Shown here: one piece after another, positions 23,686 to 45,311 of the stretch
Layout: every line of letters starts with the position of its first letter
Position numbering within the stretch: the stretch's first letter is position 1
From: Acidobacteriota bacterium
GTDB taxonomy: Bacteria > Acidobacteriota > Terriglobia > Acidiferrales > UBA7541
Direction of reading: 5' to 3'
DNA: 46,116 nt
Assembly: GCA_013289585.1 (NCBI GenBank)
Contig: JABCZR010000005.1
Location: 1 to 46,116, forward strand
Made by a program: the position numbers and the translations under genes
The notes under the pieces: model-generated
Seen by the model: only the letters and a program-made list of their open reading frames with translations
Databases searched by the model: none
Told to the model about the DNA's origin: nothing

Positions 23686-23689
23686 GATA

Positions 23690-23729: not shown

Positions 23730-23786
23730 ATTGAATAGCAGGTCAGTGGATCTCGGTTTTTCTGACCGCTTAAGGGAGGTTTTTCG

Positions 23787-29760: not shown

Positions 29761-30576
29761 ATGACGAATAACCAAAACCATGAAACTTGGGCAGAACTGC
29801 TGCACAGCGCCGTCCGCACGCCGGGAAAACTTCTCGCAGCTTACACCGCTTTCCACAACTACTCGTTTGGGAATGCCTTGCTTGCCCTCACCCAGTGCCA
29901 CCGCCGTAACTTGGAGCCGGGACCGCTCAATACCTATCGAGGCTGGTTGGAATTCAAACGCCAAGTCCGTAAAGGCGAAAAGGGCATCACCCTTTGCATG
30001 CCGATGCAGTACAAGAAGCGCGCTCGGAAAGATGAGCCGGAAGGCGTGGAAAGCGAAGAAGTGACGCGGTCCACGTTCGGCTTTCGCGCCTATTGGTTTG
30101 TCTTGGCGCAAACGGACGGAGAGGCAATGGACACGATACCCATTCCCGGCTTTGACTTGGACACCGCCCTCCGTACGCTGAACATCACGCGCGCGGAATT
30201 TGACGAAATGAACGGCAACATCCAGGGCTTTGCCACAGGCCGAGAAATCGCGATCAGCCCAATTGCAGCAATTCCGCACAAGACGACGTTTCATGAAATC
30301 GCCCACTGTGTTCTGCAACACACCACAAACAAAAAACTCGTGGACTCCGAAGCCACGCCGATGAATCTCCGCGAAGTGGAAGCGGAAGCAGTTGCACTCA
30401 TCTGCTGCGAAACGCTCAGCCTCGACGGAGTGGAATACGCTCGCGGCTATATCCAGCATTGGCTTAGAGGCCAAAGGGAAATCCCGAATCACAATGCGGC
30501 CCGCATCTTCACTGCCGCAAGCATGATTTTGAAAGCAGGCAATCCACTGGAAATGGGCTGTACGCTCACCGCTTAG
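29761..30576 (+). CDS. ardC: ArdC-like antirestriction protein
   Basis: A 271-aa protein. The N-terminal ssDNA-binding domain contains HNYSFGNALLALTQC, PGPLNTYRGWLEFKRQVRKG and EKGITLCMPM. The C-terminal zincin-like domain has KTTFHEIAHCVLQHTT (HExxH near 179-183) and a later Glu in REVEAEAVALICCE. ArdC proteins protect transferred DNA from restriction during establishment. It has its own ribosome site (AAGGAG) and lies alone between the tra operon and the defence operon. Confidence 0.93.
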   Translation: MTNNQNHETWAELLHSAVRTPGKLLAAYTAFHNYSFGNALLALTQCHRRNLEPGPLNTYRGWLEFKRQVRKGEKGITLCMPMQYKKRARKDEPEGVESEEVTRSTFGFRAYWFVLAQTDGEAMDTIPIPGFDLDTALRTLNITRAEFDEMNGNIQGFATGREIAISPIAAIPHKTTFHEIAHCVLQHTTNKKLVDSEATPMNLREVEAEAVALICCETLSLDGVEYARGYIQHWLRGQREIPNHNAARIFTAASMILKAGNPLEMGCTLTA

Positions 30577-30856: not shown

Positions 30857-32353
30857 ATGCCAGCAGCAGCTTCTTACCAGTATCGAATAGTTGCCGACCA
30901 GAATTTCATAGTTGCAACTCGTGACGCGGGATACCGGAATCTCGCGACGGCACTTGCGGAACTAATTGACAATGCTATACAGGCTGGTGCGACCTGCGTT
31001 CGAATCTTCGCTGATTGCGGCACACCTTCACTTTCTCAAATTGCCGTTCTAGATGACGGCAGCGGTATGTCCGCCCCGGCCCTGCGGATGGCGCTTCAGT
31101 TCGGAGGAACCACCAGATTCAACGACAGATCGGGCCAAGGCAGGTTCGGCATGGGCTTGCCAAATAGCTCGTTGAGTCAGGCCAGACGAGTCGATGTGTA
31201 CTCTTGGCTCAGCCCGGAAGCCGCAAGCTATTCATACCTCGATTTGGACGCGGTGGCGAACGGAAAGCTCCGATATATCCCAAGACCTCAAGCCGTTCGC
31301 GTCCCAAGCTGGGCAGTTGAGTATGCTGGCCCCTCAGGAACATTGGTGATATGGCGAAACTGCGACCGCGTGCCGACCGTTGAGAAGACAGCGCTCATTC
31401 AGCATCTTCACGTGAACTTCGCGCGCATGTACCGCTACCACTTGTGGGACGGCTTTAGACTCCTCGTCAACGACCAACAGGTTTTCGCTATTGACCCCAT
31501 GCTATGCGACCGACGCGCTGCGCTCAGGGGGGCGACGGAATTTCAAACACCTCTCTTTTACACGATGAAAGTGCCGCGCGAACCACAAAGAACTGCCCAG
31601 GTGAGAGTTCGATTCGCCGAGTTTCCAATTGCCAAATGGCACGGTTTATCTTCAGCGGACAAACGCTCACGCGGTATTACTCGACGTGCTGGAGTCTCCA
31701 TTGTTCGAGGAAATCGTGAGGTTGCCTATGGATGGTACTTCATGGGTGCAAAGCGCAAAGAGAATTATGACGACTGGTGGCGCTGCGAGATTACCTTTGA
31801 CCCTGAACTCGATGAATATTTTGGAGTCACAAACACCAAGCAGCAAATTTCACCAGTTCCCGAGCTTGAGGATACGCTGTCGAAGGATCTGGAGCCGATG
31901 GCTCGCCTACTGAATTCACGTGTGAGGGCGACCTTCAACACCCTTCGAAAAGACAGCCCTGCGGCACGGCTCGCTGTAGTCCGTGACCGCCTCTTGCCAC
32001 CAGCCACCTCACTCGTTTCCAGTTCGTGCGTCAGTGTGGATGCACGAAGAAAAGTTCACAGTAGTGGATTTCAGTACAAGATCGAAGAAGCTGCATCTTC
32101 CGACGATTCCTTTTATTCGATCCGTCTGTCTGGGGCGAAGCTCATCGTCGTTCTTAACACCAACCATCCGTTTCACAGGCACTTTTTCCAGAACAAATAT
32201 AAGGATGGAAGTAACGAACGCTATCGTCTGGAGTGCCTGCTTTTTGCTTTAGCGCGCGCTGAGGCAGAAATCAAGAACGAACGGGAACTCGATTTTTGTC
32301 GCCGTAGGCGCATTCGGTGGAGCAATGTCCTCGCAACCTTTCTCGGAAATTAG
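30857..32353 (+). CDS. GHKL-family ATPase (HSP90/MORC-like), first gene of the defence operon
   Basis: A 498-aa protein. ATP-binding motifs are clear: LATALAELIDNAIQAGA (Glu35, Asn39), VLDDGSGMSAPALRMALQFG (Asp66-Gly70) and GQGRFGMGLPNSSLSQA (95-105). The middle shows DEYFGVTNTKQQISP and the C-terminal part is charged and helical (ECLLFALARAEAEIKNEREL). GHKL ATPases in MORC, MutL and gyrase use ATP-driven dimer closure on DNA. It overlaps the DUF4338 gene by 29 bp. A GHKL gene is not one of the canonical Druantia components, so its role here, possibly sensing or clamping DNA, is inferred. Confidence 0.9.
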   Translation: MPAAASYQYRIVADQNFIVATRDAGYRNLATALAELIDNAIQAGATCVRIFADCGTPSLSQIAVLDDGSGMSAPALRMALQFGGTTRFNDRSGQGRFGMGLPNSSLSQARRVDVYSWLSPEAASYSYLDLDAVANGKLRYIPRPQAVRVPSWAVEYAGPSGTLVIWRNCDRVPTVEKTALIQHLHVNFARMYRYHLWDGFRLLVNDQQVFAIDPMLCDRRAALRGATEFQTPLFYTMKVPREPQRTAQVRVRFAEFPIAKWHGLSSADKRSRGITRRAGVSIVRGNREVAYGWYFMGAKRKENYDDWWRCEITFDPELDEYFGVTNTKQQISPVPELEDTLSKDLEPMARLLNSRVRATFNTLRKDSPAARLAVVRDRLLPPATSLVSSSCVSVDARRKVHSSGFQYKIEEAASSDDSFYSIRLSGAKLIVVLNTNHPFHRHFFQNKYKDGSNERYRLECLLFALARAEAEIKNERELDFCRRRRIRWSNVLATFLGN

Positions 32354-34439
32354 AAGTCTGGAGACTCGCGAACAAGTCAACGTCGAACCTCAAATAGGCC
32401 GGCGTGCGCGGAAGATCGTTCGAAGCTTCGCGCGAAGACTAATCCAAGCTCAGGACGATCACGAAGCATTACTACTTCGAGAGAACTTTCTAAAGAAGGC
32501 TGATGCTTTGGGCCGAGACGCGCAGGCACTCCGCGTTTCTCTAGGAGTTCTTTTCGACCTGACGCTTCAGGGATGGGTTCTAACTCTCACGCGCTCTGCA
32601 ATCCGCGCCAAACCACCTGAACCCGACCACAGTTCTCCAGAAAATGAAAAACGCCGATTGCGCCACGGACATCTGCATGAGCGCAACAATCAGTTGCGTC
32701 AACCCTCGACTCGCGATTTCATTCGTAAAATGGAGCGGCAACACCCGGGACCCCGTGGATGGGTATCCATCTTTTCTCTCATGCGCGACGGACGGGAACT
32801 CGCCGAAAAGTTACGTGGAGCCGCAGCGCTTCGGGACGAATCCGAACGAAGCACTCACCTGAAGACTTGTATTTCACCTTACCTTCAAGTTGTCGACAGC
32901 ACTGCCTATTGTGAACTGACGGGTTTAAGACTGGGCGATATTTGGCGATATTTTCGGCATACTTGGACGACACCCTACAACAGCACCCCTGGTCGAAAGA
33001 TCTGGATAATTGTCCGCGACCGTGCTGCACGCAACCACCCCGTTATTGGGATCGCAGCGATTGGAAGTGCCGTAGTTCAACTCTCGGCTAGAGACCGTTG
33101 GATAGGTTGGACATCCGAAAAATTTCTCGAGCAACTGAGCCTCAGGCCCGCTGTCAAATGGGCACGCTGGGTGAAAATATCTCTCAAGGCCCTAGCCAAC
33201 AACATCTACAAGAAAGACTTTCTCAAGGAACGTATCGTTGCCACCAAAGATCTGAAATTCCCAAGCGAGGAGACTATCAGCAAACTTCTCCATGAATCGG
33301 CTAAGGCTCGCCGCCGCCACCAAAAATATCCTAAACGTGATGAGCACAAAGGCCGAGGTCGGTCCCCTAAGGCCATCTGGAGGAAACAGACGGCTCTTGA
33401 TCTCTTTAGAGCAAAGCGCGCTGAATCGCTGGCCGAATTATTGACAGCAAAAATGGGACTTCGACGAGCAGGCTTCATGAGGGCCAATGGACCCGATCTC
33501 AAGAAAGCGCTGGGGAGTGGTCAGGGTAGACGCGCGCTCGAAATCATCCTGAGGCAGATTAAGGCGGCACACGTTGGCATCGACATGCTGGACATCACCG
33601 TGTGTGGCGCCGTTCCTCCGTATAACTCCATTCTTGGCGGAAAACTCGTGTCACTACTTCTTACAAGCCCCGAAATCGTCAAGGCGTACACGCGGAAGTA
33701 CTCAAGAACTCCGAGCATCATTGCATCCTCTATGGCTGGACGTCCTATTCGGCGTGCTCCGAAGTTAGTGCTCTTGGGGACAACTAGCCTTTATAAGGTG
33801 AATCCTAGTCAATACAACCGTCTTCGAATTGACGGAGCAGACGTCGGGGGCAGGCGAGGCGAAGGCATTCGTTTCGAATGTTTAGGAGAAAGCGAGGGGT
33901 TTGGCTCGTACCACCTTTCTCAGGAGACTGCTCGCGAGGTTGAAGCATTGTTGGCACAGAGTCACCCAGGAACGAGAGTTAACAGTATTTTCGGTGAGGG
34001 AGTCAATCCCCGACTGCGCAAGCTGCGGGCGGGCGTTGATTTGCTTGGGCTCGATTCAAATAAGCTCCTGAATCATCGGAGTTCACGGGTAGTTTACGGA
34101 GTGCCACTTGCGTCGAATTTTCGTGATGTGCTCCTTGGACTGAACGTCAGGCCGCGCTATGTTTTCCCGCAAACTCATCCCCCCAAAGTGACTGAAAGGA
34201 TTGTGGACTTTTGGATTCGCAGATGGCTAGTCCGGCGCATTTTGAACGAAAGCGTGTTGGAATCTACGGCTTCGCATTCTCTTTTTCACCCGATTTCCCA
34301 TGGCGCACGCGTATTTGTACCCGTAACGGGTGAAGAAACTTCACGCGCCATTGACCAAGACGGCACACTGCATCAGTCGGAAGACTCGTCGCTTCCGACC
34401 TCTGCGCCTACCATGATAACTGTCTCGTGTAGTCCATAG
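32325..34439 (+). CDS. DUF4338 protein, DruA-like
   Basis: A 704-aa protein. Around residue 200-260: YCELTGLRLGDIWRYFRHTW, GRKIWIIVRDRAARNHPVIG. Around 420-500: CGAVPPYNSILGGKLVSLLL, TSPEIVKAY, and LVLLGTTSLYKVNPSQYNRL. These are the recurring blocks of DUF4338, the family of DruA in type I Druantia. At 704 aa it is clearly longer than the about 400 aa of E. coli DruA; the extra part lies in the N-terminal 180 residues, the middle (KARRRHQKYPKRDEHKGRG) and the C-terminal 150. DruA's biochemical role is not established. The start overlaps the GHKL gene, with GGTGGAG immediately before the ATG. Confidence 0.85.
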   Translation: MSSQPFSEIRSLETREQVNVEPQIGRRARKIVRSFARRLIQAQDDHEALLLRENFLKKADALGRDAQALRVSLGVLFDLTLQGWVLTLTRSAIRAKPPEPDHSSPENEKRRLRHGHLHERNNQLRQPSTRDFIRKMERQHPGPRGWVSIFSLMRDGRELAEKLRGAAALRDESERSTHLKTCISPYLQVVDSTAYCELTGLRLGDIWRYFRHTWTTPYNSTPGRKIWIIVRDRAARNHPVIGIAAIGSAVVQLSARDRWIGWTSEKFLEQLSLRPAVKWARWVKISLKALANNIYKKDFLKERIVATKDLKFPSEETISKLLHESAKARRRHQKYPKRDEHKGRGRSPKAIWRKQTALDLFRAKRAESLAELLTAKMGLRRAGFMRANGPDLKKALGSGQGRRALEIILRQIKAAHVGIDMLDITVCGAVPPYNSILGGKLVSLLLTSPEIVKAYTRKYSRTPSIIASSMAGRPIRRAPKLVLLGTTSLYKVNPSQYNRLRIDGADVGGRRGEGIRFECLGESEGFGSYHLSQETAREVEALLAQSHPGTRVNSIFGEGVNPRLRKLRAGVDLLGLDSNKLLNHRSSRVVYGVPLASNFRDVLLGLNVRPRYVFPQTHPPKVTERIVDFWIRRWLVRRILNESVLESTASHSLFHPISHGARVFVPVTGEETSRAIDQDGTLHQSEDSSLPTSAPTMITVSCSP

Positions 34440-34510: not shown

Positions 34511-37408
34511 ATGCCTTCGAACCTTGCGTTGTGGCAAGAACGTCTGGAGAAACATTTCTCCAGCGTTCGTGACGAACGTTCCATGCTGCACGGTGAACAT
34601 CCAGTCTTTGCGTTGGAACACGGCCTCGCAGAAGATGAGATCTCTGAACTGATCGCTCAGATCAGCAACCCTTCTGCTCCGCCACCACCGTCAGACCGAC
34701 ACTGGCTCGTCTGGACCGTCTATGCGACGGAACTAGGATACGAATATGCAGGCGACGAGTACTGGCTTACCTTCGAAGAGAAGACTCCGGGATGGCCTGA
34801 GCGAGCAGATCGTAGTTGGCTGCGGGACTGCTTCTGGAAATTCTGCAAAACCTATCACGGGGCGAAACCGGCCGGCGCCTGGGCCAGACACTTCTCGATC
34901 ATTTGCTGGCCCATTAGTCATGCAATTTTACCCAAAGATCTCCAGCGCCAACTCGCTGAGATTCTCTATCAGATCCGCTATTTATTTCGGAAGGAATTAT
35001 TCGACTCTCCGCAATTGCTGGGTAACGAAATCGCGGCACGAAGTTGGATGGCCAGCCCGCGATTCCAAATCCTAGCCGACGAACCAGTCCTTCTCGGCCA
35101 AATTGCGGCTGCATTGCTAATAGGCGAAAGCGATCAGGCGAAGAGTTTGATCCTTCCTGACACCTTACTCCGCATTGCTAGGAATTTGGATAAGGAACGA
35201 CGTTCGCGAGAGTGGCTAAAAGATGCGCGAGCAGCCGCGAAAGCAAAACTCAGTGGCCTTGCCCGAGCGTTTGTAGTCCCTCCCGAAGCCAGAGAACTAC
35301 CTCCACGCCAGGAACTGCAAACCCTGGGGATTGAGCCGCGTGTGTACCTACGCCCGATTTCTCATTCGTGGGAAGTAGTCCTTGAAATCCCCGATCTTGC
35401 GCCGCTCCTCTCCAAATTTCCCGATCTCCACGAAGTTCTCGGTGGCACCTGTGTTGTGACTGGCTCCAGTGGCCGCCCGCTGGCACGTGGACGATTGTTG
35501 CACTATGGTCCTCAGAACGTTGTTCTCAAACGTTGGCCCGATCCGACAGAAATATTGTTGCAGTTCGAAAGACGAACACCCCAATTGGAAAATCTTCTCA
35601 GTGCTGAATGTATGTTGCGGCCAGGACCTAACTGGCTTTTCAAGATATCAACGGAGGGAATCGCACGGGAAATTCGGGGACAAGTCATTCGACCCGGAAA
35701 CAAATACATCCTTCTGAACACTGGACACATTCCTCTGCACCAAGACACGCAACCTGCCTCAGTGCAATGCGATAATGTATATGCCGCTCGGCTTGATATT
35801 CCCGACGTGCTGTCCGACGAAGGGCTACAGCATTTCGTCGGTCTTGGCCTAAAACCCGCTAGACATATCGACGTACGCCCTGCTGGTTTGCCACCCGTAA
35901 ATTGGGATGGCGAGGGGCATGCAGAATGGTTGTCGAGCGATCTTCCTTGCATCTGCGTCTCAAGCGACCATCCGATCAAAGCCCTCACGTTTAATCTAGA
36001 GAGTTCTTTTGGAAGTAAACTGGATATTGTACCGAGTGAAGCTGGCGAGCGCGTCTTCGTCGCGTTGAATGAGCTTCCTCCCGGCGATCACATTCTGCAT
36101 GTCCTAGCGCAGTCGTCTTCTGACGAGATTCTGATTGGACGACTAGATTTGACAATCCGCCCTCCACGTCCTTGGCAGCCCGCTCTAACCGAACAGAACG
36201 CACTTTTTGTGATTGTCGCTCCGCCAAATCCTTCACTGGAACAATTGTGGGAAGGCAAGGTTGTCCTTGAGCTTCAGGGGCCAGCATCCCGACAGGCTAG
36301 CTGCGGGCTGTCGTTTTCATCTGAGGGATTACGACACACCCCGTCGCTCCGCAAGCAGCTTCCGCCCTTCTCGCTTCCACTCGTTACGGAGGGGTGGAAC
36401 TCTTATTTTGAGACTAACGTCCGTTCGGATTCAGTCATTCAGCAATTCTACGATTCTGCGAGTTCGTGCGAACTTCAATTCACAGCAGAAGAACTCGGTC
36501 AATTCACTCTAACGTGTCGCCGCGAGTTTTCTCCCTTGCGCTGGATTGTGAGATGGGAAAATCACGCCTATGTGCTACGACTGCGAGATGACACGGGCGA
36601 TTCAGCTACTCTGGTGGTCCTTCGTTATGAGTTTGAGGGACCCGACACGCCAATTCCCCTGAGTCTGGTTGAAAAAGACCACCAGTTCAGGGTCCCTGAG
36701 TCGGGCGGACTGTTTTTAGCACGGTCCACAACTTCCAGGAGGAATATAATCCTGCCTCCGCTCGTGCGCTCGTTGGAGGACCTACGAGTAGAACCAGTCC
36801 TACGCGGATGCGGTGGGGATGCTCAAAGTGTTGGCAGCCTAATCATTCTGTACGACATCTGGTCGGAAGCTCGAATTACAGGGGATCCGCTGTCTGCAGC
36901 AAGGCAAAATGATGTTCTCACAGCTCTTATGAAGGCGATCATCGAGCAATTCTGTGGGAGCGACTGGCTTTCTCAGGAACTCGCATTCCACGAAGCCAAA
37001 AACGACTTGCGCCCGCTGAAATCCGCCATTTCACGAAAGATAGCCCTCGCTGGTTTTGGGGCGGCCCTAATGGCCAAGTCCGTTGAGCTAAACCAACAGA
37101 GGTGTTCGCAGAGAGTCTCTACATTTTCCCAAATTGCACAGAATTACCTACAATTGCCCGGATTCGCCAGTTTTCCTGCTAGCTCCAAAGATCTTTACCT
37201 TTGGATAGCCGAGTTTGTATTGCGGCTGATGACGGCACCCCAAACCTTAGTTCATTGGGCGGGAAGCGACTTCCATCTCGGGATCGAATACGTACTCCAA
37301 TGCCCTCCCTTCGCTAGGGGTGGCCGCTTTCTCACCCTCGCCCTTTCCTTCATGAATGTATCCCAGCGCCGTGGCCTCATTCGTCCTCCCGGATGGGACT
37401 GGCAATGA
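34511..37408 (+). CDS. unrecognised 965-aa protein of the Druantia-like operon
   Basis: A large soluble protein with no membrane helix. The N-terminus MPSNLALWQERLEKHFSSVR, then HPVFALEHGLAEDEISELIA, is distinctive. An alpha-helical part (about 1-260: LPKDLQRQLAEILYQIRYLF, LLRIARNLDKERRSREWLKD) is followed by a beta-rich middle (about 280-780) with many Pro-Gly turns (SHPIKALTF, FVALNELPPGDHIL, HAYVLRLRDDTGDSATLVVL), possibly tandem immunoglobulin-like domains. A helical C-terminus (ALMKAIIEQFCGSDWLSQEL) closes it. In position it could replace DruB/DruC or DruH of other types, but I cannot show homology. The stop overlaps the next ATG. Confidence 0.85.
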   Translation: MPSNLALWQERLEKHFSSVRDERSMLHGEHPVFALEHGLAEDEISELIAQISNPSAPPPPSDRHWLVWTVYATELGYEYAGDEYWLTFEEKTPGWPERADRSWLRDCFWKFCKTYHGAKPAGAWARHFSIICWPISHAILPKDLQRQLAEILYQIRYLFRKELFDSPQLLGNEIAARSWMASPRFQILADEPVLLGQIAAALLIGESDQAKSLILPDTLLRIARNLDKERRSREWLKDARAAAKAKLSGLARAFVVPPEARELPPRQELQTLGIEPRVYLRPISHSWEVVLEIPDLAPLLSKFPDLHEVLGGTCVVTGSSGRPLARGRLLHYGPQNVVLKRWPDPTEILLQFERRTPQLENLLSAECMLRPGPNWLFKISTEGIAREIRGQVIRPGNKYILLNTGHIPLHQDTQPASVQCDNVYAARLDIPDVLSDEGLQHFVGLGLKPARHIDVRPAGLPPVNWDGEGHAEWLSSDLPCICVSSDHPIKALTFNLESSFGSKLDIVPSEAGERVFVALNELPPGDHILHVLAQSSSDEILIGRLDLTIRPPRPWQPALTEQNALFVIVAPPNPSLEQLWEGKVVLELQGPASRQASCGLSFSSEGLRHTPSLRKQLPPFSLPLVTEGWNSYFETNVRSDSVIQQFYDSASSCELQFTAEELGQFTLTCRREFSPLRWIVRWENHAYVLRLRDDTGDSATLVVLRYEFEGPDTPIPLSLVEKDHQFRVPESGGLFLARSTTSRRNIILPPLVRSLEDLRVEPVLRGCGGDAQSVGSLIILYDIWSEARITGDPLSAARQNDVLTALMKAIIEQFCGSDWLSQELAFHEAKNDLRPLKSAISRKIALAGFGAALMAKSVELNQQRCSQRVSTFSQIAQNYLQLPGFASFPASSKDLYLWIAEFVLRLMTAPQTLVHWAGSDFHLGIEYVLQCPPFARGGRFLTLALSFMNVSQRRGLIRPPGWDWQ

Positions 37409-38490
37409 GACGTATCAACATATCCGAACTTCACGAGCTTGGCGTTAGAAGCCTCGGGCTTGATGCCTCTAGCCTTGACCTTACAAGCGTGGAAGGCATT
37501 GCTGGCGCACTTCGTAGAGCAGCAGGATTTTCCTGTCCGTGCTCGGAGGAAGAACTCATTGCCTATGTCTTCCAGTCGATCCGCGATCTTGTCTCCAACA
37601 CGGAGGAACTACACGATCTTATCGACGCAACCCTTCAAGCCTTGCTCGGCTACGGAGATCTCGTGGAATGTCGAATGCTTGCAGGGGACGCGGCAAACAA
37701 TTCCAACACGCTACTTTATCTAACCCCACCCAGCTTTGTGGCACGCAGGGACGGCAGCGTCTTTTTGCTGGGCATTGCTCCCGACGATTTGTCTCCTCTA
37801 CCAGCGCAGTATTTATCACGAGTCGAGCGTGACGGCCACGTGAGACGCATACAGCCCCTAACTGAAGAGAACCTCGCTTTGTGCCTTGTTCAATTCGGCT
37901 TCTGGGAACTACCTCTTGACCAGTGGCTTCGCACGCCATTGGCCGAGCCCGCCCGACAATACTTGACGAGATTTGATGAGCGGCTTGGTTCCTCCCCTCC
38001 CGCTGGCTCCATTCCTGGCCTTCGAATGCTCGATCCGTCGAAATCGGTACGGTTTTATCCGGGGCGCTGGACGCAGCTACGAAATCAGACGGGGAAGTTT
38101 GTGGGACGACGCCCACAAGCGTACGGAGCCGATCTCTGGTGCTACGCGGAAATAGAAAATGGCCACATTCAAAAAATGCTGGACTTCCCCCAGTTTGAGA
38201 AGAGATGGAGGCCTTGTGATGAGGCCTGGAGACTGCAATCCGCAATAGACGCCTGCAATTCCAAGCCTCAGCATTATCGCGTGCGGCCTGGACCTACGAG
38301 AGAAACATCGGTGCTCGACCTTTTCTCTCCCGTACCACTGTGGGCTCAGCGACGCTGGGACCTCACAGGCCACCCCACTCCTCGGAGTGGGAGCTTGTTC
38401 TCCTATGTGCTTCCCGCAAGTGCCTTGGACGAGGAACTTCGGTTTTTGAAGAGCATGCTCTGGCTGATTGATTCGAGAGAGGTAGGGTAG
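37405..38490 (+). CDS. unrecognised 361-aa protein of the Druantia-like operon
   Basis: The start MRRINISELHELG at 37405 overlaps the previous stop (ATGA). An in-frame ATG four codons earlier (37393) is possible. The N-terminal 100 residues are helical (AAGFSCPCSEEELIAYVFQS, LHDLIDATLQALLGYGDL) and resemble a small winged-helix domain followed by LYLTPPSFVARRDGSVFLLG. The rest has many aromatic residues (RFYPGRWTQLRN, LWCYAEIENG). No known catalytic motif is visible. It sits between the large unknown protein and the helicase, suggesting a bridging or regulatory subunit. Confidence 0.82.
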   Translation: MRRINISELHELGVRSLGLDASSLDLTSVEGIAGALRRAAGFSCPCSEEELIAYVFQSIRDLVSNTEELHDLIDATLQALLGYGDLVECRMLAGDAANNSNTLLYLTPPSFVARRDGSVFLLGIAPDDLSPLPAQYLSRVERDGHVRRIQPLTEENLALCLVQFGFWELPLDQWLRTPLAEPARQYLTRFDERLGSSPPAGSIPGLRMLDPSKSVRFYPGRWTQLRNQTGKFVGRRPQAYGADLWCYAEIENGHIQKMLDFPQFEKRWRPCDEAWRLQSAIDACNSKPQHYRVRPGPTRETSVLDLFSPVPLWAQRRWDLTGHPTPRSGSLFSYVLPASALDEELRFLKSMLWLIDSREVG

Positions 38491-38494
38491 TACG

Positions 38495-41400
38495 TTGGCT
38501 GAGACAATCGTTCAAACAATTCAGCAACTCCACCTGTCGCTCCGAGATTACATCGAGGCCGCCTATCACATCAGCAACCCAATTCTCGTAGCCCAAAGAA
38601 AATCTCTCTTGAATCAACTCGGGGTGATTCACCAACGTCCATACCTCGAAAGCACACGTCGCTATCAGACTCAGGAAAAGTTTGCCGACATCCACGGTCT
38701 CGACCCGGCCGTCCTTGAAATATTTGACACCATTTCCTCTGCCTCGAATGGTCTTCCGCTCATCATTCACGATCCGCCGTTCGCGCACCAAGCAGAAGCC
38801 GTGCGCCAAGCCCTCGTCGAACATAAGAGCTTGATGGTGACCACCGGCACTGGATCAGGCAAGACAGAGAGTTTTCTGCTACCTATTCTCGGCAAGATCG
38901 CGATTGAGGCGACAAAGCGGCCAAGTGTTTTTCAATCTTTCCCTGCCGTCCGGGCGATGATTCTGTATCCGATGAACGCCCTCGTGAACGATCAGCTGGG
39001 ACGACTACGATTGCTCTTTGGTGATCCTCGACTGACGCGCAAGTTTACGGAATGGGCCGCCAGGCCTGCGCGATTTGCAAGGTACACCAGCCGGACGCTC
39101 TATCCCGGTGTGCGCAATGCAAAAAAAGACCAGGAGCGCCTCGCCCCGCTCTCGAATTACTACGTGCGGAACCTTAGCAGGGCACTTGATCCTGCCGACC
39201 CCCAACACACGGTCGCACAAAGGTTAGTGAGAGCCCTCCAAGACAGAGGCAAATGGCCGGCAAAGCCCGATCTGATCAAGTGGTTTGGTCAGAAAAAGTC
39301 GCGATGGCAGGACTCCAAATCTCGAGCTTTTTTGCGCTGTGTCACGCTACCCGGTGACCCGGAGCTTCTTACGCGACATGAGGTCCAGGAAGCACCACCC
39401 GATATCCTGGTGACAAACTATTCCATGCTTGAGTACATGTTGATGCGCCCGTTGGAACGACCGATATTTGATCGAACAAAGCAATGGCTTGAATCAAATC
39501 CCGACGAAACCTTCCTTCTTGTCCTCGACGAGGCACATCTTTACAACGGGGCCGCGGGCGCTGAGGTCGCCCTCCTCATCAGACGTCTGCGGAAGCGACT
39601 TGGGATTGACGCCGAGCGCTTGCAAGTCATCTGCACGAGTGCAAGCTTCGGAAATCCGCTCTATGCATCTCAGTTTGGAGCCCAACTGACGGGAAAGAAT
39701 CCGCGCGATTTTGCCACGATCGCTGGAAATCTCTCATTGCGAACGCCATCCCAAGCTGGGACGTTACCGGATGCTGAGGCTCTTGCAGCAATAGATTTGA
39801 CGCAATTCAACGAATCCGATGCGGCTGCTCGTATCGTTGAGGTGCGTACTTTTCTCGAATACCGGGGCGTGCAAAACCGCAATGATCTGGAGCTCGCCCT
39901 ATATGATGCGCTTTCTTCCTTCCAACCGATGAACCGGCTAGTCAATCTCACAATGAATGAAGCACGTCCTATCGAGGCGCTTGGCGAAGACATATTTCCT
40001 GGGATTGAACCCAATTTGGGAGCCAGGGCAGTAACCGCGCTTACCACGCTTGGGAGTCTGGCGCGGAAAGCCAAGAACGAACCTGGTCTTCTTCCATGTC
40101 GGGTGCACGCCTTCTATCGTGGCTTGCCCGGGCTTTGGGCTTGTCTCGATTCCAACTGTTCTCAATTGCCTCCGCCACAGCGAGGCGGCCCCACGGGCAA
40201 ACTCTTTGGCCAGCCCCAAGAGACTTGTCAGTGCGGTGCGCGTGTACTTGAGCTTTATACCTGCCGGAACTGTGGCACGGCATACGCGCGCGCCTATACC
40301 GACAACCTCGTGGAACCCAATTTTCTATGGAGTGAAGCTGGATCTGAGTTCCGGTCGTTCAAAGGCGAGATTACTGAGTTGGAGCCCTTGGACCTCCTAT
40401 TGGAGGAACCAGTATCAGTGGATGTGGAACCCGCGGACTATGACCTGGTCACTGGTAGATTGAATCCGCAAAAATCAGGCGAACGCATTCGGCGCGTATT
40501 CCTCCGCAAAGAAAGGACACTCACACCTGCCAATGGCGAAGACGGCGAGGCGGCACGCGATGCAAAAGCTGGAGAGTTCCGTCCCTGCGGTGTATGCGGA
40601 CAAACAGCAGCATACGGAAGAACCTACGTGCAAGATCACCAGACGAAAGGTGACCAACCATTTCAAGCCCTCATTGCCAAACAGATCCAAGTCCAACCTC
40701 CCAGTAATGCCCAGGCAACACGGCTTGCACCGCTCCGCGGCCGAAAGGTGCTGATTTTCTCTGATTCGCGCCAAACTGCAGCCCGACTTGCACCAAATCT
40801 TCAAAAATACTCAACTCTTGATGCACTGCGTCCATTGATCTTGGTTGGCTATCGGTATCTGCAACAGATTCAGATCTTGAAAGAGGCTCTTTCCCTTGAG
40901 GATTTGTACTTTGCAGTTCTTCTTTCCGCAAAGTTGTTAAATGTACGTCTTAGACCAGAACTTAGAACTGGTGAGCACTTCAACGAAGAATCAGTTGTAG
41001 AGCAGGCCATCCAGAGTGGCGGCATTTCAGATCCAACGCAACTATTGATTCTCTGGGGCAATTTACGCTCGGCTCCCATGCCCGAATCCCTCCTGGCTGC
41101 AACGATGGACGCCTTCCAGGATCGTTACTACGGTCTTGAGGCGCTGGCGCTCGCTTCAGTTACAGAAAGAGCGTCGCATTCGCGGAATATCGTTACCCTG
41201 CCGGACATACCCGGCGTCGCCACAACAGATGCCGCAAAGCTTGCTGTGGTCAGGACTTGGTTCCGCGGTTGGCAGCGTTTAGGTTTTTGGTTGGGGAAAA
41301 TGCCCGCGGGTTGGTGGCAACTAAACGTGCGAGCGCATGCCACTGGGAATTTTACTCTCCTCAACAATTTCTTAAGGGACAAGGCTTCCAAATCGATTTT

Positions 41401-44041
41401 CCAGAAAGCATGGCTTCCGCAGCTCCTAGTCTGGTTCGCGGAGCCCGTTCCGGGAGATCAGTATCGGTTGAAGGGAAGCGAACTATCATTGCTCATCAGC
41501 ACTGAATGGTCTTACTGCAAGGTATGCCGAACCCCACAACGTCCCATCCCCGGATTATCGGTGTGCGTAAATTGTGGAAAGGGCAAGGCAGAACCAATTG
41601 ATCCCGACACGGACCCCGTGTTCGCAGCTCGAAAAGGCTACTATCGTGCGAGTTCGGTCGACGCCTTGCGAACTCCCCCTACGTCTCCAATGTCTCTCAT
41701 CGCCGCCGAACACACAGCGCAGCTAAACACAGCACAGGCGGCTGAGGTTTTTTCCAAGGCTGAAGAACATGAACTGCTCTTTCAAGATGTCGATCTCGGT
41801 CCCGATGAGTCGCGAAGGGAACGGCCGGCAATCGACGTCTTGTCGTGCACGACAACCATGGAGGTCGGAATCGACATTGGAACGTTGTCTGGCGTGTCTC
41901 TCCGAAACATGCCCCCTGCTAGGGCCAACTATCAGCAGCGTGCCGGTCGAGCAGGTCGTCGCGGCAGTGCCGTAGCGACGGTCACGGCATTCGGCAGCGC
42001 GGACAGTCACGACGAGCATTACTTTACACATCCAGACCAGATGATTCGCGGCCTCGTGGACGATCCAAAACTGACGCTCGACAACTACGAAATTGCTAGG
42101 CGACATGTAACTGCCTACCTTCTGCAGCAGTACCATTCCGATCGCTTACCTGACATCGATCCACAGGATCAGCCACACCTCTTTGCTGTCCTGGGCACCG
42201 TCGCGGGTTTCAAGAACCCAACCTCAATACTTAACCGCAGCGATTTTGTGCAATGGCTCACTCACAATCAGGACAAACTTAGCACGGATGTTGCAGACTG
42301 GTTGCCCTCTGAATTGTCACCGGATGATCGCAAACGCCTTCTCGCTTCTCTCATTGTAGAAACCATCACTCCGATTGACGCAGCTATTGAATTCGACGCA
42401 AGCCAAGTCAATCCTATCCCCTCAACGGACACACAACCTCAACTTTCCCCAGAAGTAGATGACGCCGACATTGAAGTTCAACCAGAGGAAGGCCAAGAAC
42501 TACCAGGTGGCGATCCGTCCGCAGAAAACCTGTTGGACCGATTGCTATACCAAGGTGTATTGCCTCGGTACGCATTTCCTACCGATGTCGCGACTTTTTA
42601 CGTTTTCGACGTTGACCGATCCACGCGCTACCGGCCAGCGTTTCACTTCACTCCCTCTCAGGGTCTCTCGGTTGCACTGAGCCAATATGCTCCAGGTAAG
42701 GAAGTGTGGATCGGCGGGAAACGTTACACCTCTGGGGCGATTTACTCCCCCATTGGTCAAGAACGGTTTCGAGCATGGCAGAACAAGCGCTTATACTACG
42801 AATGCAATATTTGTCACTACGCTTGCACTGTTCCTCTTGAGCAAGGCGTCCGAGGCGAGTTCCGAGATTGTCGCGCATGCGGCGGAGTAGGTACATTCGG
42901 CGCAGCAAGATACTGGCTGCGTCCTCCCGGATTTGCGCATCCGGTCGATGTCGATGAGCAAACCTCTCTAGACGATCTGCCGCCCAAGAGTCATGCCACC
43001 CGTGCCAAGCTTGTTGCACCTAGTCCCGCTGCCGAGGAACGATGGACTCGCGTTAACGAGCGACTCCGATTGGCCCATCTTAAGGACCGCCTGCTCGTAA
43101 CGAATCGCGGTCCCCGACAAGAGGGCTATAGCTACTGCACGAAATGCGGTCGTGTTGAACCGACGATATCCGCTATCAGCACCGTCTTTGCTGCCCACCG
43201 TAAACCGTTCCCGGGTGAGCGGGAGGCGCATTGTCCAGGTGGCGGCGCCGCGCGCAACCTCGTCCTCGGTACTGATTTCATCACAGACGTTCTCCTAATT
43301 CTGGTGACCGTTGAACGGCCATTGACGCTGAAACCAGGCCTACTGGCTACCGACGTGGTCCTACGAACTCTGAGCGAGGCATTAGCTAAGGCTGCATGCT
43401 CGTCATTGGAACTCAAGCCCAGCGAAGTCCAGGCAGAATACAGGCCTGCCCTAACTGAATTTGGTCAGACCGGCACGCAATCTGAAATCTACCTGTACGA
43501 TACTCTTCCCGGCGGAGCTGGATTTGTTGCGCAGGCTGGGCGCCTCGGCCTGCCCCTTTTCGAGCAAGCACTCAAGCTTCTCGAAGATTGTGACTGCGAT
43601 CGTTCCTGTTATCGCTGTCTCCGCAGTTACAAGAACAAGTTTGAGCACGACCTGCTCGATCGTGGTCTCGGTTCGAGCCTCTTGCGTCATCTTCTGACCG
43701 GTGCTCCCGCTGTTCTCGACCAGGCTAGGACCAACAAATCCACCGACCTGCTTTTTGAGGATCTCGAACGGCAACAGGTCAACTCGATTACGGTTGACCG
43801 AAACGCTTCGCTAAACGTACCCGGATTAGGCGAAATCGTGGTTCCGATTCTCGTACGGCAAGCGAGCGGCGGATTACGTGCAATAGGCATTCACGGCCCG
43901 TTAACGCCTGATGTTCCTGTCGACGGCGTACTCAACGACCTGAAGGAATATTCGGCTATTCCGGTGAAACTCGTTGATGAGATTGAAGTGCGTAGAAACT
44001 TGCCAAGAGCTACGAGCGATTTGCTACGCGAACTGGTCTAG
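38495..44041 (+). CDS. large DEAH-box helicase with DUF1998 domain, DruE-like
   Basis: An 1848-aa protein with a TTG start at 38495, four bases after the previous stop. Motifs: AHQAEAVRQAL, Walker A TTGTGSGKTESFLLP (118-124), PMNALVNDQLGRLR, DEAH in VLDEAHLYNGAAGAEV near 345, and motif VI YQQRAGRAGRRGSAV near 1147. Several Zn-ribbon-like Cys sets occur: CQCGARVLELYTCRNCGTAY, CRTPQRPIPGLSVCVNCG and ECNICHYACT with DCRACGG. The C-terminus has the DUF1998 block LYDTLPGGAGFVAQAG and CDCDRSCYRCLRSYKNKFEH near 1670-1720. DruE of Druantia has this layout and size (about 1800-2100 aa); MrfA-like repair helicases are shorter. It is probably the DNA-translocating core of the system. Confidence 0.93.
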   Translation: MAETIVQTIQQLHLSLRDYIEAAYHISNPILVAQRKSLLNQLGVIHQRPYLESTRRYQTQEKFADIHGLDPAVLEIFDTISSASNGLPLIIHDPPFAHQAEAVRQALVEHKSLMVTTGTGSGKTESFLLPILGKIAIEATKRPSVFQSFPAVRAMILYPMNALVNDQLGRLRLLFGDPRLTRKFTEWAARPARFARYTSRTLYPGVRNAKKDQERLAPLSNYYVRNLSRALDPADPQHTVAQRLVRALQDRGKWPAKPDLIKWFGQKKSRWQDSKSRAFLRCVTLPGDPELLTRHEVQEAPPDILVTNYSMLEYMLMRPLERPIFDRTKQWLESNPDETFLLVLDEAHLYNGAAGAEVALLIRRLRKRLGIDAERLQVICTSASFGNPLYASQFGAQLTGKNPRDFATIAGNLSLRTPSQAGTLPDAEALAAIDLTQFNESDAAARIVEVRTFLEYRGVQNRNDLELALYDALSSFQPMNRLVNLTMNEARPIEALGEDIFPGIEPNLGARAVTALTTLGSLARKAKNEPGLLPCRVHAFYRGLPGLWACLDSNCSQLPPPQRGGPTGKLFGQPQETCQCGARVLELYTCRNCGTAYARAYTDNLVEPNFLWSEAGSEFRSFKGEITELEPLDLLLEEPVSVDVEPADYDLVTGRLNPQKSGERIRRVFLRKERTLTPANGEDGEAARDAKAGEFRPCGVCGQTAAYGRTYVQDHQTKGDQPFQALIAKQIQVQPPSNAQATRLAPLRGRKVLIFSDSRQTAARLAPNLQKYSTLDALRPLILVGYRYLQQIQILKEALSLEDLYFAVLLSAKLLNVRLRPELRTGEHFNEESVVEQAIQSGGISDPTQLLILWGNLRSAPMPESLLAATMDAFQDRYYGLEALALASVTERASHSRNIVTLPDIPGVATTDAAKLAVVRTWFRGWQRLGFWLGKMPAGWWQLNVRAHATGNFTLLNNFLRDKASKSIFQKAWLPQLLVWFAEPVPGDQYRLKGSELSLLISTEWSYCKVCRTPQRPIPGLSVCVNCGKGKAEPIDPDTDPVFAARKGYYRASSVDALRTPPTSPMSLIAAEHTAQLNTAQAAEVFSKAEEHELLFQDVDLGPDESRRERPAIDVLSCTTTMEVGIDIGTLSGVSLRNMPPARANYQQRAGRAGRRGSAVATVTAFGSADSHDEHYFTHPDQMIRGLVDDPKLTLDNYEIARRHVTAYLLQQYHSDRLPDIDPQDQPHLFAVLGTVAGFKNPTSILNRSDFVQWLTHNQDKLSTDVADWLPSELSPDDRKRLLASLIVETITPIDAAIEFDASQVNPIPSTDTQPQLSPEVDDADIEVQPEEGQELPGGDPSAENLLDRLLYQGVLPRYAFPTDVATFYVFDVDRSTRYRPAFHFTPSQGLSVALSQYAPGKEVWIGGKRYTSGAIYSPIGQERFRAWQNKRLYYECNICHYACTVPLEQGVRGEFRDCRACGGVGTFGAARYWLRPPGFAHPVDVDEQTSLDDLPPKSHATRAKLVAPSPAAEERWTRVNERLRLAHLKDRLLVTNRGPRQEGYSYCTKCGRVEPTISAISTVFAAHRKPFPGEREAHCPGGGAARNLVLGTDFITDVLLILVTVERPLTLKPGLLATDVVLRTLSEALAKAACSSLELKPSEVQAEYRPALTEFGQTGTQSEIYLYDTLPGGAGFVAQAGRLGLPLFEQALKLLEDCDCDRSCYRCLRSYKNKFEHDLLDRGLGSSLLRHLLTGAPAVLDQARTNKSTDLLFEDLERQQVNSITVDRNASLNVPGLGEIVVPILVRQASGGLRAIGIHGPLTPDVPVDGVLNDLKEYSAIPVKLVDEIEVRRNLPRATSDLLRELV

Positions 44042-44048
44042 ATCCACC

Positions 44049-45311
44049 ATGGAAGAGCAAATCACCCCAATAGTCTGGGCAGAGGAACCAAACACTTGGC
44101 CAGCAGCGCCAGAATGGATGAGTTTCTACCGACTTCTCGAGACCGAAGCTTGCCCTAGGCGCGTTGCACTCAAGTCCGCAATGTACCCGCACCTTTGGAA
44201 TCGCCCTGGTTACCCACCCAAGCTCCGACTACCCGCACTATTTGGCCGAGTGGTGCATTTAGCTCTTCGGACACTCGGAGCAAAGTTCGCACAAGCCGGG
44301 TGCTCGTCAGCATCAGAGATTGGCGCTGTTACTTTGCTGAAAAACTTGGGCGGTCTCAGCCAGGTAGTCAATAAATGCGTAGATAGTGTATTCGCCGAAC
44401 AAGCAGAGAACCCTCGCGGCGGTGCCTCCAGAAAGGCACTCTTCGAGAATTTGAAGGCACGACTACCTCAACTCCGCGAACAGGTCCAGATCAAGTTGAG
44501 ATACCTGCAATTCGGAAAAGTCGCTCCAGTGGCGGTGAGCCACAGAAAGCAAGGAGCACCTCCATCCCAAACACTCGACGGGTCACATTCTGAGGTTGAA
44601 TTGCGCGCACCTTCGCTACGGTGGATTGGCGTCGCGGACTATGTAGCGCTATTCGGGAACTATTGTGAAATCGTAGACTTTAAGAGCGGAAATCCCGAGC
44701 AAGAACATAAGCTGCAAATCCTAATATACGCACTTCTTTGGGCTCGCGACCAGAACCTAAATCCCGACGCTCGAATCGCAAATAAGCTCACGCTTTCATA
44801 CGAGACGGGCACGATTGACGTCCCGGCCCCTTCACAAACTGAACTCCGCGAACTAGAAGAGAAGATTCAGACCCGCACAGAACTCGCTCGCAACGCACTT
44901 GGCACGCTTCTCCCTGACGCTAGACCTTCTCTAGACAATTGTCGTTTTTGCGACGTGCGTCACCTCTGCAGCGCATATTGGAAGCCGCAAACTCAACAAC
45001 AATTTGCCCAGCACGAGTTACCCTCAAGCGACTACGTCGATCTCGAAATGAGGATCGTCTCGCAGCAAGCAATGAAAAGTTGGAAAGGTATAGTAACGTC
45101 CTCTCAGATCTTACAACCTGGAACGCACATACTTCTCCGAACCTCCGTGTTCGACAACTCGCTTGATGAAGTGCTGCCCTCAGCAATGGGCCATCAAGTG
45201 CGAATCCTAGACGGACGTCTAAGTAATCCATCCGCAGACGACTTCCCAGCGATAATTACGCTTTCCGAACGGAGCGAAGGATTCCTGCTTAAGTCGAGAC
45301 GCTCGGAATGA
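44049..45311 (+). CDS. Cas4/RecB-like PD-(D/E)XK nuclease with Fe-S cysteine set
   Basis: A 420-aa protein from the ATG at 44049. Nuclease residues: His70 (FGRVVHLAL), Asp197 (GVADYV), Asp210 and Lys212 (EIVDFKSG), and Gln223...Tyr227 (KLQILIYALLW). Cysteines C35 (TEACPRRVAL) and C298, C301, C307 (NCRFCDVRHLC) match the arrangement that holds a 4Fe-4S cluster in Cas4 and AddB nucleases. The last 90 residues may be a small beta domain (GIVTSSQILQPGTHILLRTS). It follows the DruE-like helicase by 7 bp. A nuclease beside the helicase offers a direct effector for the system; this is inferred. Confidence 0.9.
   Translation: MEEQITPIVWAEEPNTWPAAPEWMSFYRLLETEACPRRVALKSAMYPHLWNRPGYPPKLRLPALFGRVVHLALRTLGAKFAQAGCSSASEIGAVTLLKNLGGLSQVVNKCVDSVFAEQAENPRGGASRKALFENLKARLPQLREQVQIKLRYLQFGKVAPVAVSHRKQGAPPSQTLDGSHSEVELRAPSLRWIGVADYVALFGNYCEIVDFKSGNPEQEHKLQILIYALLWARDQNLNPDARIANKLTLSYETGTIDVPAPSQTELRELEEKIQTRTELARNALGTLLPDARPSLDNCRFCDVRHLCSAYWKPQTQQQFAQHELPSSDYVDLEMRIVSQQAMKSWKGIVTSSQILQPGTHILLRTSVFDNSLDEVLPSAMGHQVRILDGRLSNPSADDFPAIITLSERSEGFLLKSRRSE

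What the first reader, a model, noticed from the sequence alone, without database searches (positions are those of the whole stretch)
30857..34439. GHKL ATPase translationally overlapped with a long DruA-like protein
The GHKL gene overlaps the DUF4338 gene by 29 bp, which suggests a stoichiometric pair. The DUF4338 protein is 704 aa instead of about 400. GHKL ATPases act as ATP-gated clamps in MORC, MutL and gyrase. A clamp partner for DruA would give a mechanism for recognising invading DNA.
Basis: partly seen in the sequence, partly recalled or inferred. Interest (0 to 1): 0.65.

Follow-up and report, generated by a model that had tools for sequence, protein, structure and literature searches.

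The report
MORC-like ATPase paired with long DruA
A bacterial anti-virus locus carries a two-gene cassette, an ATP-driven protein built like the DNA-handling MORC proteins of animals and plants plus a long DruA protein, that stays together in very different bacteria and is combined with different DNA-processing machines; how it works has not been tested.

Summary
A GHKL ATPase gene (30857-32353) overlaps a 704-aa DruA gene (32325-34439) by 29 nt. The overlap alone says little: two other junctions of the operon overlap too, and long DruA already has a PADLOC profile.

The pairing is the finding. In 81 of 90 long-DruA loci examined, GHKL lies directly upstream, in 8 named phyla; 0 of 21 short-DruA loci have it in the DNA held. 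GHKL and DruA distances agree (rho 0.95), hardly changed by accounting for DruE. Closely related pairs sit beside different helicase backbones. GHKL-DruA is thus an exchangeable cassette inside a Druantia type I-like system (uncharacterised 965-aa protein, DruD, DruE, Cas4-like nuclease) beside conjugation genes.

Models: the ATPase is MORC/SMCHD1-like with conserved ATP motifs; DruA has a GNAT-like core and a helical insert that short DruA lacks. Against: 8 of 90 loci have no GHKL (five with SspFGH/DndFGH-like neighbours), gene linkage alone could mirror distances, and the MORC signature motif is not met. No paper joining Druantia with GHKL or MORC was found in the library searched.

The parts
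30857..32353 (+). MORC-like GHKL-S5 ATPase (498 aa), first gene of the cassette
   Evidence: Pfam HATPase_c_3 E 1.2e-19; AF2 model pLDDT 87.7; VIA Z 23.6 to SMCHD1, 19.8-23.0 to MORC2-4; E35, N39, D66, G1/G2 glycines and K328 conserved in 98-100 of 100 homologues
32325..32353 (+). 29-nt overlap of GHKL stop region and DruA start
   Evidence: junctions overlap in 44 of 79 loci by a heuristic start choice
32325..34439 (+). long DruA (704 aa), second gene of the cassette
   Evidence: PADLOC PDLC00001 E 1.9e-178, residues 18-676; AF2 model pLDDT 88.9, pTM 0.88
32871..33110 (+). DruA GNAT-like core, N-terminal half (residues 183-262)
   Evidence: VIA match to 1y9k_D Z 8.7, rmsd 3.1, 140 aa, model range 181-595
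33114..33572 (+). helical insert of long DruA (residues 264-416), absent from short DruA
   Evidence: hhalign long against short DruA, Prob 100, E 6.5e-44; net charge +24 here, positive in 42 of 48 homologues
33573..34136 (+). DruA GNAT-like core, C-terminal half (residues 417-604)
   Evidence: net charge positive in 48 of 48 homologues
34275..34328 (+). DruA C-terminal tail with HGARV-type motif (residues 651-668), candidate GHKL docking element (lead only)
   Evidence: motif in 74 of 74 DruAs with main-clade GHKL, 1 of 7 with minor-clade GHKL, 1 of 8 without GHKL (89 of the 90 loci; L034 had no gene model); pattern widened after seeing the data
34511..37408 (+). 965-aa protein of unknown family (P965), in the place of DruB and DruC
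   Evidence: no hit in Pfam, PADLOC or NCBIfam at E 0.1; 22-member alignment A4; no convincing hhalign match to DruB or DruC
37393..38490 (+). DruD (365 aa)
   Evidence: PADLOC DruD1 E 2.3e-119
38495..44041 (+). DruE, YprA-family helicase (1848 aa) with Walker A, DEAH and QRAGRAGR motifs
   Evidence: PADLOC DruE1 1929 bits, residues 2-1845; motifs
43974..45311 (+). Cas4/DruK-like PD-(D/E)XK nuclease (up to 445 aa; start uncertain)
   Evidence: PDDEXK_1 E 5.5e-15; DruK E 5.4e-12 and Cas4 E 3.8e-11; DYV...EIVDFKSG, QILIY and CxxC...C motifs

Best explanation
The window holds a Druantia type I-like anti-phage locus in which the usual short DruA is replaced by an exchangeable two-gene cassette: a MORC-like GHKL-S5 ATPase and a long DruA with a GNAT-like core and a helical insert. 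Most likely the two proteins work as one ATP-controlled unit. ATP binding dimerises and closes the GHKL ATPase, as in MORC and MutL; DruA is its dedicated partner that engages nucleic acid and/or couples it to the DruE helicase; DruE with the Cas4-like nuclease then acts on the invading DNA. Shown here: gene pairing, exchange as a unit, agreeing distances, folds (predicted) and conserved ATPase residues. Inferred: physical complex, ATP-gated closure on DNA, DruA-DNA contact, hand-over to DruE, and anti-phage activity.
For: GHKL directly upstream of long DruA in 81 of 90 loci, in 8 named phyla, plus one adjacent inverted copy in Poribacteria. The pair keeps its order whether the P965-DruD-DruE genes (or the part in view) are on the same strand (10 loci) or the other (41 loci), and also occurs with DruB/C-type (3), SNF2/NERD (8) and SspFGH/DndFGH-like (3 of 8) neighbours. 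Distances over 45 loci: GHKL-DruA rho 0.948, partial given DruE 0.939, GHKL-DruE given DruA 0.043. Over 30 loci with all five genes, full-partial GHKL-DruA is 0.917 and links across the two modules are -0.23 to 0.24; P965, DruD and DruE form the other module. Cassette exchange: L030 (DruB-like, DruD-like, DruE) and L025 (P965, DruD) share 88.9% GHKL and 80.6% DruA identity; L027 and L026 share 75.6% and 65.1% but only 33.7% in DruE. Short DruA replaces the cassette on the same backbone in L110 and L134, and 0 of 21 short-DruA loci have GHKL in the DNA held. Structure: GHKL Z 23.6 to SMCHD1 and 19.8-23.0 to MORC2-4 against 17-19 for TopoVIB and Hsp90. ATP residues conserved. Precedent: in VcSduA a GHKL domain is fused to a PD-(D/E)XK nuclease and the authors hypothesise that it controls it (PMC12137116, passages).
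Against: No complex was predicted or measured. Adjacent genes are transferred together, so agreeing distances and tight spacing can arise without contact. Eight long-DruA loci have no GHKL, five of them with SspFGH-like neighbours, so GHKL is not needed for every long DruA. In nine loci with 5 kb or more on both sides the pair has no recognised Druantia backbone in view. The 80 genome loci are the best of 227 by similarity to the query, so distant relatives are under-sampled. The charge of the insert varies from -6 to +24 and the GNAT half is positive too. The GNAT match is at Z 8.7, near the level the tool calls middling, and Foldseek alone gave no hit at E 0.001 or better.
Confidence: 0.5

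Rival explanations
1. The pair is only a genetic cassette: the two genes are co-transcribed and co-transferred but act at different steps without binding each other.
For: Overlapping or abutting genes are transferred together, which alone yields agreeing distances; other junctions of the same operon also overlap; raw correlations of the pairs P965-DruD (0.882) and DruD-DruE (0.905) are nearly as high as GHKL-DruA (0.923).
Against: The pair stays intact while the rest of the locus is inverted or exchanged; in L060 the two genes remain neighbours in opposite orientation; in the 30-locus set, links from GHKL or DruA to the other genes nearly vanish once the rest is accounted for.
Confidence: 0.22
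2. GHKL-DruA is a separate defence or mobile-element system that merely lies beside Druantia helicase operons.
For: Opposite-strand layout in 41 loci and no recognised backbone in nine loci with 5 kb or more on both sides; the two modules evolve separately.
Against: 62 of 90 loci carry at least part of a DruE-type backbone nearby; short DruA stands in the same position in L110 and L134, and first in the canonical order in L108, so DruA belongs to Druantia.
Confidence: 0.18
3. The GHKL protein is a sensor kinase-like or chaperone-like regulator of the locus rather than a DNA-acting ATPase.
For: GHKL folds include histidine kinases and Hsp90; Hsp90 structures reach Z 17-18.5.
Against: SMCHD1 and most MORC structures score higher (Z 22-24, rmsd 3.5-4.4 over about 300 residues; one MORC2 entry 19.8), and the profile search puts MORC2/3/4 in the top nine of 32 hits; no kinase dimerisation domain was reported by Pfam.
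Confidence: 0.08

Closest known systems
Druantia type I (DruA-B-C-D-E)
   Same: DruA domain, DruD and DruE of the type I profiles; compare L108, short DruA, DruB, DruC, a 374-aa protein and DruE
   Different: DruB and DruC are replaced by one 965-aa protein not shown to be related; DruA is long; a GHKL ATPase precedes it; a Cas4/DruK-like nuclease follows DruE
Prokaryotic MORC and paraMORC ATPases of restriction systems (Iyer et al. 2008, PMC2292703; parts 1-2 of 4 read)
   Same: GHKL plus S5 module, helicase and nuclease neighbours, lateral spread
   Different: MORC signature motif not met; the neighbourhoods described in the parts read do not mention DUF4338/DruA
VcSduA, Shedu nuclease with GHKL domain (PMC12137116, passages read)
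   Same: GHKL ATPase joined to a PD-(D/E)XK nuclease in phage defence
   Different: One fused protein; no DruA or YprA-family helicase in the passages read
DndF/SspF with fused DUF4338 (PMC10853773, one passage read)
   Same: DruA-type domain, called GNAT there; long DruA stands beside or fused to SspF-like genes in L005, L006, L007, L085, L088
   Different: No GHKL in those five loci; FtsK/HerA-type motor as the large ATPase of that operon
Helicase-GHKL-PLD triads beside phosphorothioate genes on plasmids (L008, L009, L116; L118 partly)
   Same: Related GHKL ATPase next to a helicase and a PLD protein
   Different: No DruA annotated there; GHKL rows fall outside the DruA-adjacent branches, except the long-branched L120

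Membership tests
Druantia type I | DruA present | tested here: met
   PDLC00001 E 1.9e-178, PF14236 118.3 bits against cut-off 27
Druantia type I | DruD and DruE of type I | tested here: met
   DruD1 E 2.3e-119, DruE1 1929 bits
Druantia type I | DruB and DruC present | tested here: not met
   965-aa protein has no PADLOC hit at E 0.1; hhalign to small DruB/DruC sets Prob 16 and 0.8, to the PADLOC-confirmed L108 proteins alone Prob 0.3 and 0.1. Filed as type I-like only.
Druantia type I | anti-phage activity | not testable with these tools
   needs a bench test
MORC family (as defined by Iyer 2008) | N-terminal GHKL plus S5 domain | tested here: met
   AF2 model and VIA Z 19.8-23.6 to MORC2/3/4 and SMCHD1 over residues 1-366
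MORC family (as defined by Iyer 2008) | conserved ATP-binding motifs | tested here: met
   N-box, G1, G2 and S5 lysine in 98-100 of 100 homologues
MORC family (as defined by Iyer 2008) | GhXhhpXXRhl motif in S5 | tested here: not met
   2 of 78 DruA-adjacent GHKLs; 63 of 78 match if position 10 is left free, Glu there in 62. Built like a MORC, not filed as one.
paraMORC1-5 | family-specific C-terminal features | tested here: inconclusive
   no reference sequences compared; C-terminal domain 405-498 modelled but not matched to a named family
MzaB of MZA | NCBIfam equivalog cut-off | tested here: not met
   77.5 bits against 850
MutL | NCBIfam equivalog cut-off | tested here: not met
   best MutL model 32.8 bits against 693
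GNAT superfamily (DruA core) | GNAT fold | tested here: met
   top VIA matches are acetyltransferases: 1y9k Z 8.7 rmsd 3.1 140 aa, 9y12 Z 8.2 rmsd 3.1 138 aa, 9ynv Z 7.8 rmsd 3.5 148 aa; modest Z. Agrees with PMC10853773
GNAT superfamily (DruA core) | acyl-CoA binding and transfer | not testable with these tools
   loop after the fourth strand has invariant G439-K440 but no standard pyrophosphate-loop motif by eye; motif recalled, not from a call

The most novel reading that the evidence does not exclude
GHKL-DruA is a portable, MORC-type recognition and licensing module of bacterial immunity: an ATP-gated ring of MORC-like ATPase with a GNAT-fold partner that entraps invading DNA and can be plugged into different effectors (Druantia helicase-nuclease, SNF2/NERD helicases, SspFGH/DndFGH-type translocases), and perhaps acts alone with two ATPases. 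It would be a living prokaryotic counterpart of the MORC silencing of foreign DNA in eukaryotes.
Probability: 0.2. Interest if true: 0.85.

Novelty: new variant of a known kind. Interest (0 to 1): 0.6.

Why it matters
What DruA does in Druantia was not explained in any passage read here, and what MORC-type ATPases do for prokaryotic immunity was predicted from gene neighbourhoods in 2008 (PMC2292703). A dedicated, separately evolving MORC-like/DruA cassette gives both questions a concrete two-protein test object. A natural comparison exists: the same P965-DruD-DruE backbone occurs with short DruA alone and with GHKL plus long DruA. If the pair forms an ATP-gated complex on DNA, it would link Druantia, SspFGH-type restriction and the eukaryotic MORC silencing machinery.

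Tried and rejected
Gene overlap as proof of stoichiometry: rejected, two other junctions of the operon overlap. Long DruA as a novelty: rejected, PADLOC models it. P965 as a DruB-DruC fusion: not supported by hhalign (Prob 16 and 0.8 against sets of 3 and 4 sequences, most placed there by gene order; Prob 0.3 and 0.1 against the two PADLOC-confirmed L108 proteins alone). GHKL as MzaB or MutL: far under the curated cut-offs. GHKL as MORC in the strict sense: signature motif fails. Long DruA as a consequence of GHKL: rejected, haloarchaeal, Hymenobacter and other long DruAs have no GHKL. DruA tail motif as docking site: kept as a lead only; the first pattern gave 57 of 74, was widened after looking to 74 of 74, and is confounded with DruA clade. 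A C-terminal GHKL motif (LNxxHPF) was found in only 25 of 78 and dropped. Whole-genome sampling in the window's phylum gave few hits (DruD 3 of 396 genomes; DruA family 6 of 396, only the window's own one full-length; both counts include the window's genome). Profile search of DruA against solved structures gave nothing (best E 0.074) and Foldseek no match at E 0.001 or better; the GNAT result rests on VIA-align and agrees with a printed statement. Rows dropped: from the short-DruA control L127 and L128 (fragment or weak match); L112, L113, L114 and L137 show no DruA in the DNA held; of the 11 plasmid records with more than a short match only six were opened. Inter-protein residue coupling was not attempted: too few sequences.
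Full report
CHECK OF THE OBSERVATION. Both ORFs exist at the stated coordinates. The GHKL gene (30857-32353, 498 aa) matches HATPase_c_3 (E 1.2e-19) and the 704-aa gene (32325-34439) matches DruA, DUF4338 (E 4.8e-34). They overlap by 29 nt, and a ggag stretch precedes the DruA ATG. The overlap is ordinary for this operon: P965/DruD overlap by 16 nt and DruE/nuclease by up to 68 nt. The length of DruA is also not new: a PADLOC DruA profile of 675 positions matches residues 18-676 (E 1.9e-178), while the 407-position profile covers only part of it.

THE LOCUS. Downstream on the same strand lie a 965-aa protein without any profile hit at E 0.1 (P965), DruD (DruD1, E 2.3e-119), DruE (DruE1, 1929 bits) and a Cas4/DruK-like PD-(D/E)XK nuclease whose motifs look intact; DruE has Walker A, DEAH and QRAGRAGR motifs. 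The locus is therefore Druantia type I-like. DruB and DruC as modelled by PADLOC are missing, and P965 could not be shown to be their fusion. Conjugation genes (TrbI, CagX, TrbL, VirB4-like ATPase, relaxase, coupling protein) lie between 6 and 27 kb of the window, so the locus sits beside, and probably within, a conjugative element.

HOW CONSERVED IS THE PAIR. A scan of one genome for each of 84,980 species with a long-DruA alignment found 227 relatives and returned the best 80; 18 loci came from viral contigs, three of them with long DruA; six came from plasmids. I mapped GHKL, DruA, P965, DruD, DruE and the nuclease with iterated profiles. Of 90 long-DruA loci (window, L002-L007, L010-L092), 79 have GHKL directly upstream on the same strand and two more have a partial GHKL at the contig edge (L034, L070), giving 81 of 90. 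Within the 80 genome loci that is 74 of 80. L060 has GHKL adjacent but inverted. L005, L006, L007, L080, L081, L082, L085 and L088 have none, and a sensitive search of these loci found no fragment. Some loci are near-duplicates: L044/L045 at 99.8-100%, and L083/L084 look alike. One further pair, outside this count, came up in a viral scan with GHKL (L131, with P965, DruD and DruE; of the five loci found there, three have DruA, and two of these three are the contigs of L090 and L091). Pairs occur in Actinomycetota, Acidobacteriota, Pseudomonadota, Myxococcota, Bacteroidota, Verrucomicrobiota, Gemmatimonadota and Thermodesulfobacteriota, by record title. By a heuristic start choice 44 of 79 junctions overlap, 16 lie 0-20 nt apart and 19 further.

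CONTRAST WITH SHORT DruA. Of 21 short-DruA loci (L093-L110 and L134-L136 from the window's phylum), none has a GHKL of this family in the DNA held. Flanks are short in some, and none of the 15 viral ones shows a DruE. The telling cases are L110 (Nitrosococcus plasmid) and L134 (same phylum as the window): short DruA followed by P965, DruD and DruE, without GHKL. Short DruA and the GHKL-long DruA cassette thus occupy the same place on the same backbone, in these two loci.

THE PAIR IS A UNIT OF INHERITANCE. Over 45 loci with GHKL, DruA and DruE, pairwise distances give rho 0.948 for GHKL-DruA, 0.827 for GHKL-DruE and 0.855 for DruA-DruE. Partial correlation for GHKL-DruA given DruE is 0.939; for GHKL-DruE given DruA it is 0.043. 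With 22 loci left after removing close relatives the values are 0.865 and -0.064. Over 30 loci with five genes (25 of them opposite-strand), GHKL-DruA has full-partial 0.917; P965, DruD and DruE hold together at 0.43-0.52; links between the two modules lie between -0.23 and 0.24. In 14 dereplicated loci the cross-links are noisier (-0.42 to 0.54). Raw correlations of P965-DruD (0.882) and DruD-DruE (0.905) are almost as high as GHKL-DruA (0.923), so linkage alone could give this level. The stronger evidence is exchange. L030 (Myxococcus; DruB-like E 5.5e-11, a 624-aa protein with only a weak DruC match, DruD-like E 1.1e-11, DruE) and L025 (Allochromatium; P965 and DruD before the contig ends) share 88.9% GHKL and 80.6% DruA identity. 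L027 (DruB-like E 5.6e-17) and L026 (P965 type) share 75.6% and 65.1% but only 33.7% in DruE and 22.8% in DruD.

SETTINGS. By neighbouring genes in view: P965-DruD-DruE type on the same strand 10 loci, on the opposite strand 41 (several show only part of the set), DruB/C-type 3, SNF2/NERD with DruE 8, SspFGH/DndFGH-like 8 (three with GHKL: L024, L033, L042), none recognised 20. Of these 20, nine have a same-strand pair and at least 5 kb on both sides of DruA (L003, L010, L012, L014, L019, L039, L083, L090, L092); at most about 10 kb were held on a side for contig loci, so a backbone further away could be missed. The SspFGH/DndFGH label rests on PADLOC hits in L085 (SspH, E 2e-68), L033 (SspG E 5.7e-16, SspF E 2.6e-6) and L024 (DndH E 2.2e-33, SspF E 5.1e-8); L042 has only a weak SspF match (E 4e-4), and L005-L007 and L088 follow by cluster membership. 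L006 and L024 also hold a DruE. The DruB/C label is partial: L027 and L030 match DruB over about 105 residues, L018 matches DruG/DruC weakly. Twelve loci have a second GHKL upstream in the tree set, thirteen with L090 in the unfiltered map; the three labels fit the GHKL tree in 5 changes, against 21 in shuffles.

THE ATPase. N-box Glu35 (98 of 100), Asn39 (99), Asp66 (100), the G1 and G2 glycines (99-100) and Lys328 (100) are conserved in 100 homologues. The family profile finds MORC2, MORC3 and MORC4 as the nine best of 32 solved sequences, ahead of MutL and topoisomerase VI. The AF2 model (pLDDT 87.7) aligns over residues 1-366 with SMCHD1 (Z 23.6, rmsd 4.4, 317 aa) and MORC2-4 (Z 19.8-23.0), above topoisomerase VI (17.7-19.3) and Hsp90 relatives (16.9-18.5). 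The MORC signature of Iyer 2008 is met by only 2 of 78; position 10 is Glu in 62. It is best called a MORC-like or paraMORC-like ATPase. Residues 84-95, where the ATP lid is expected, are low in confidence.

DruA. The AF2 model has pLDDT 88.9 and pTM 0.88. The best VIA matches are GNAT acetyltransferases (1y9k Z 8.7, rmsd 3.1, 140 aa; 9y12 Z 8.2), spanning about 181-595 with a gap for the insert. Z values are modest and Foldseek alone was not significant, but a published analysis also calls DUF4338 a GNAT domain (PMC10853773, one passage). Against short DruA (six sequences) the long form adds an N-terminal stretch and a helical insert at about 264-416. The insert carries net charge +24 in the window and is positive in 42 of 48 homologues (range -6 to +24); the C-terminal GNAT half is positive in 48 of 48, so the insert is not the only basic part. 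The C-terminal tail has a conserved HGARV-like motif in 74 of 74 DruAs whose GHKL is of the main clade, 1 of 7 with the minor clade and 1 of 8 without GHKL. The pattern was widened after inspection and follows the phylogeny, so it is only a lead.

MECHANISM. Shown: a conserved, exchangeable two-gene cassette with a MORC-like ATPase whose ATP motifs are kept and a DruA of predicted GNAT-like fold. Inferred: GHKL dimerises on ATP and closes on DNA, as established for MutL and MORC proteins (general knowledge; an abstract start in the listing, PMC8277788, states that C. elegans MORC-1 topologically entraps DNA); DruA binds the ATPase and nucleic acid; the closed unit licenses DruE and the Cas4-like nuclease. 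Druantia type I DruE carries a nuclease domain predicted to be inactive (PMC12458937, passage), which would give the Cas4-like protein a role; this was not tested here. In Druantia III another partner, DruH, is the likely sensor and DruE the effector (PMC13192584, passages). By analogy GHKL-DruA could be the sensor arm here.

LITERATURE. In the library of open PMC papers no paper holds both Druantia and GHKL or Druantia and MORC; the YprA study (abstract, outline, one section and passages read) has no GHKL or MORC in its main text. The PADLOC paper (passages read) describes Druantia type IV but no GHKL variant in those passages. A paraMORC study of two-component-like proteins (PMC8011034, passages) does not concern Druantia in the passages seen. 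Supplements and papers outside the library were not seen, so the association may be recorded there.

VERDICT. The pairing is confirmed and is more widely conserved than the single window could show. The clamp and recognition idea is plausible but untested. Interest 0.6; a new variant of a known kind.

Noticed in passing
window 5965-14198 (-) and 22252-26770 (+): Conjugation genes: TrbI, CagX, TrbL, a VirB4-like ATPase, a relaxase and a T4SS coupling protein; the defence locus probably travels on a conjugative element.
   Followed up: partly
window 29761-30576 (+): ArdC-like anti-restriction protein (ArdcN E 2e-9) with a weak IrrE-type peptidase match, next gene upstream of GHKL: anti-restriction beside defence.
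   Followed up: no
window 1890-4640 (-): 916-aa TPR-CHAT protein (caspase-like domain, E 2.2e-68) next to an S41 peptidase at 661-1950.
   Followed up: no
window 34511-37408; L016, L020, L021, L028, L037, L089: P965 family: mostly about 960-1050 aa when complete, no hit in Pfam, PADLOC or NCBIfam for the window's member, and shared (hhalign Prob 100) between the P965-DruD-DruE and SNF2/NERD backbones.
   Followed up: partly
L008, L009, L116, L118: Related GHKL ATPases in helicase-GHKL-PLD triads on plasmids, beside PAPS reductase, DndB or cysteine desulfurase genes in L008, L009 and L116.
   Followed up: partly
L005, L006, L007, L085, L088: Long DruA beside or fused to SspF-like proteins with SspG- and SspH-like genes and no GHKL (PADLOC run on the L085 SspH-like protein only).
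   Followed up: partly
L014, L017, L019, L086, L089, L010, L012, L022, L083, L090, L091, L002, L003: Tandem GHKL genes before DruA, in five of them with a small protein of 195-235 aa between the two; possible heterodimer.
   Followed up: partly
L048, L051, L052, L055, L057, L062, L065: In Streptomyces and Kitasatospora a protein family whose L052 member matches the PADLOC candidate PDC-M02B sits at the place held by the Cas4-like nuclease elsewhere.
   Followed up: no
L042 4120-11824: Two long DruA genes, divergent: one beside a weakly SspF-like gene, one paired with GHKL.
   Followed up: no
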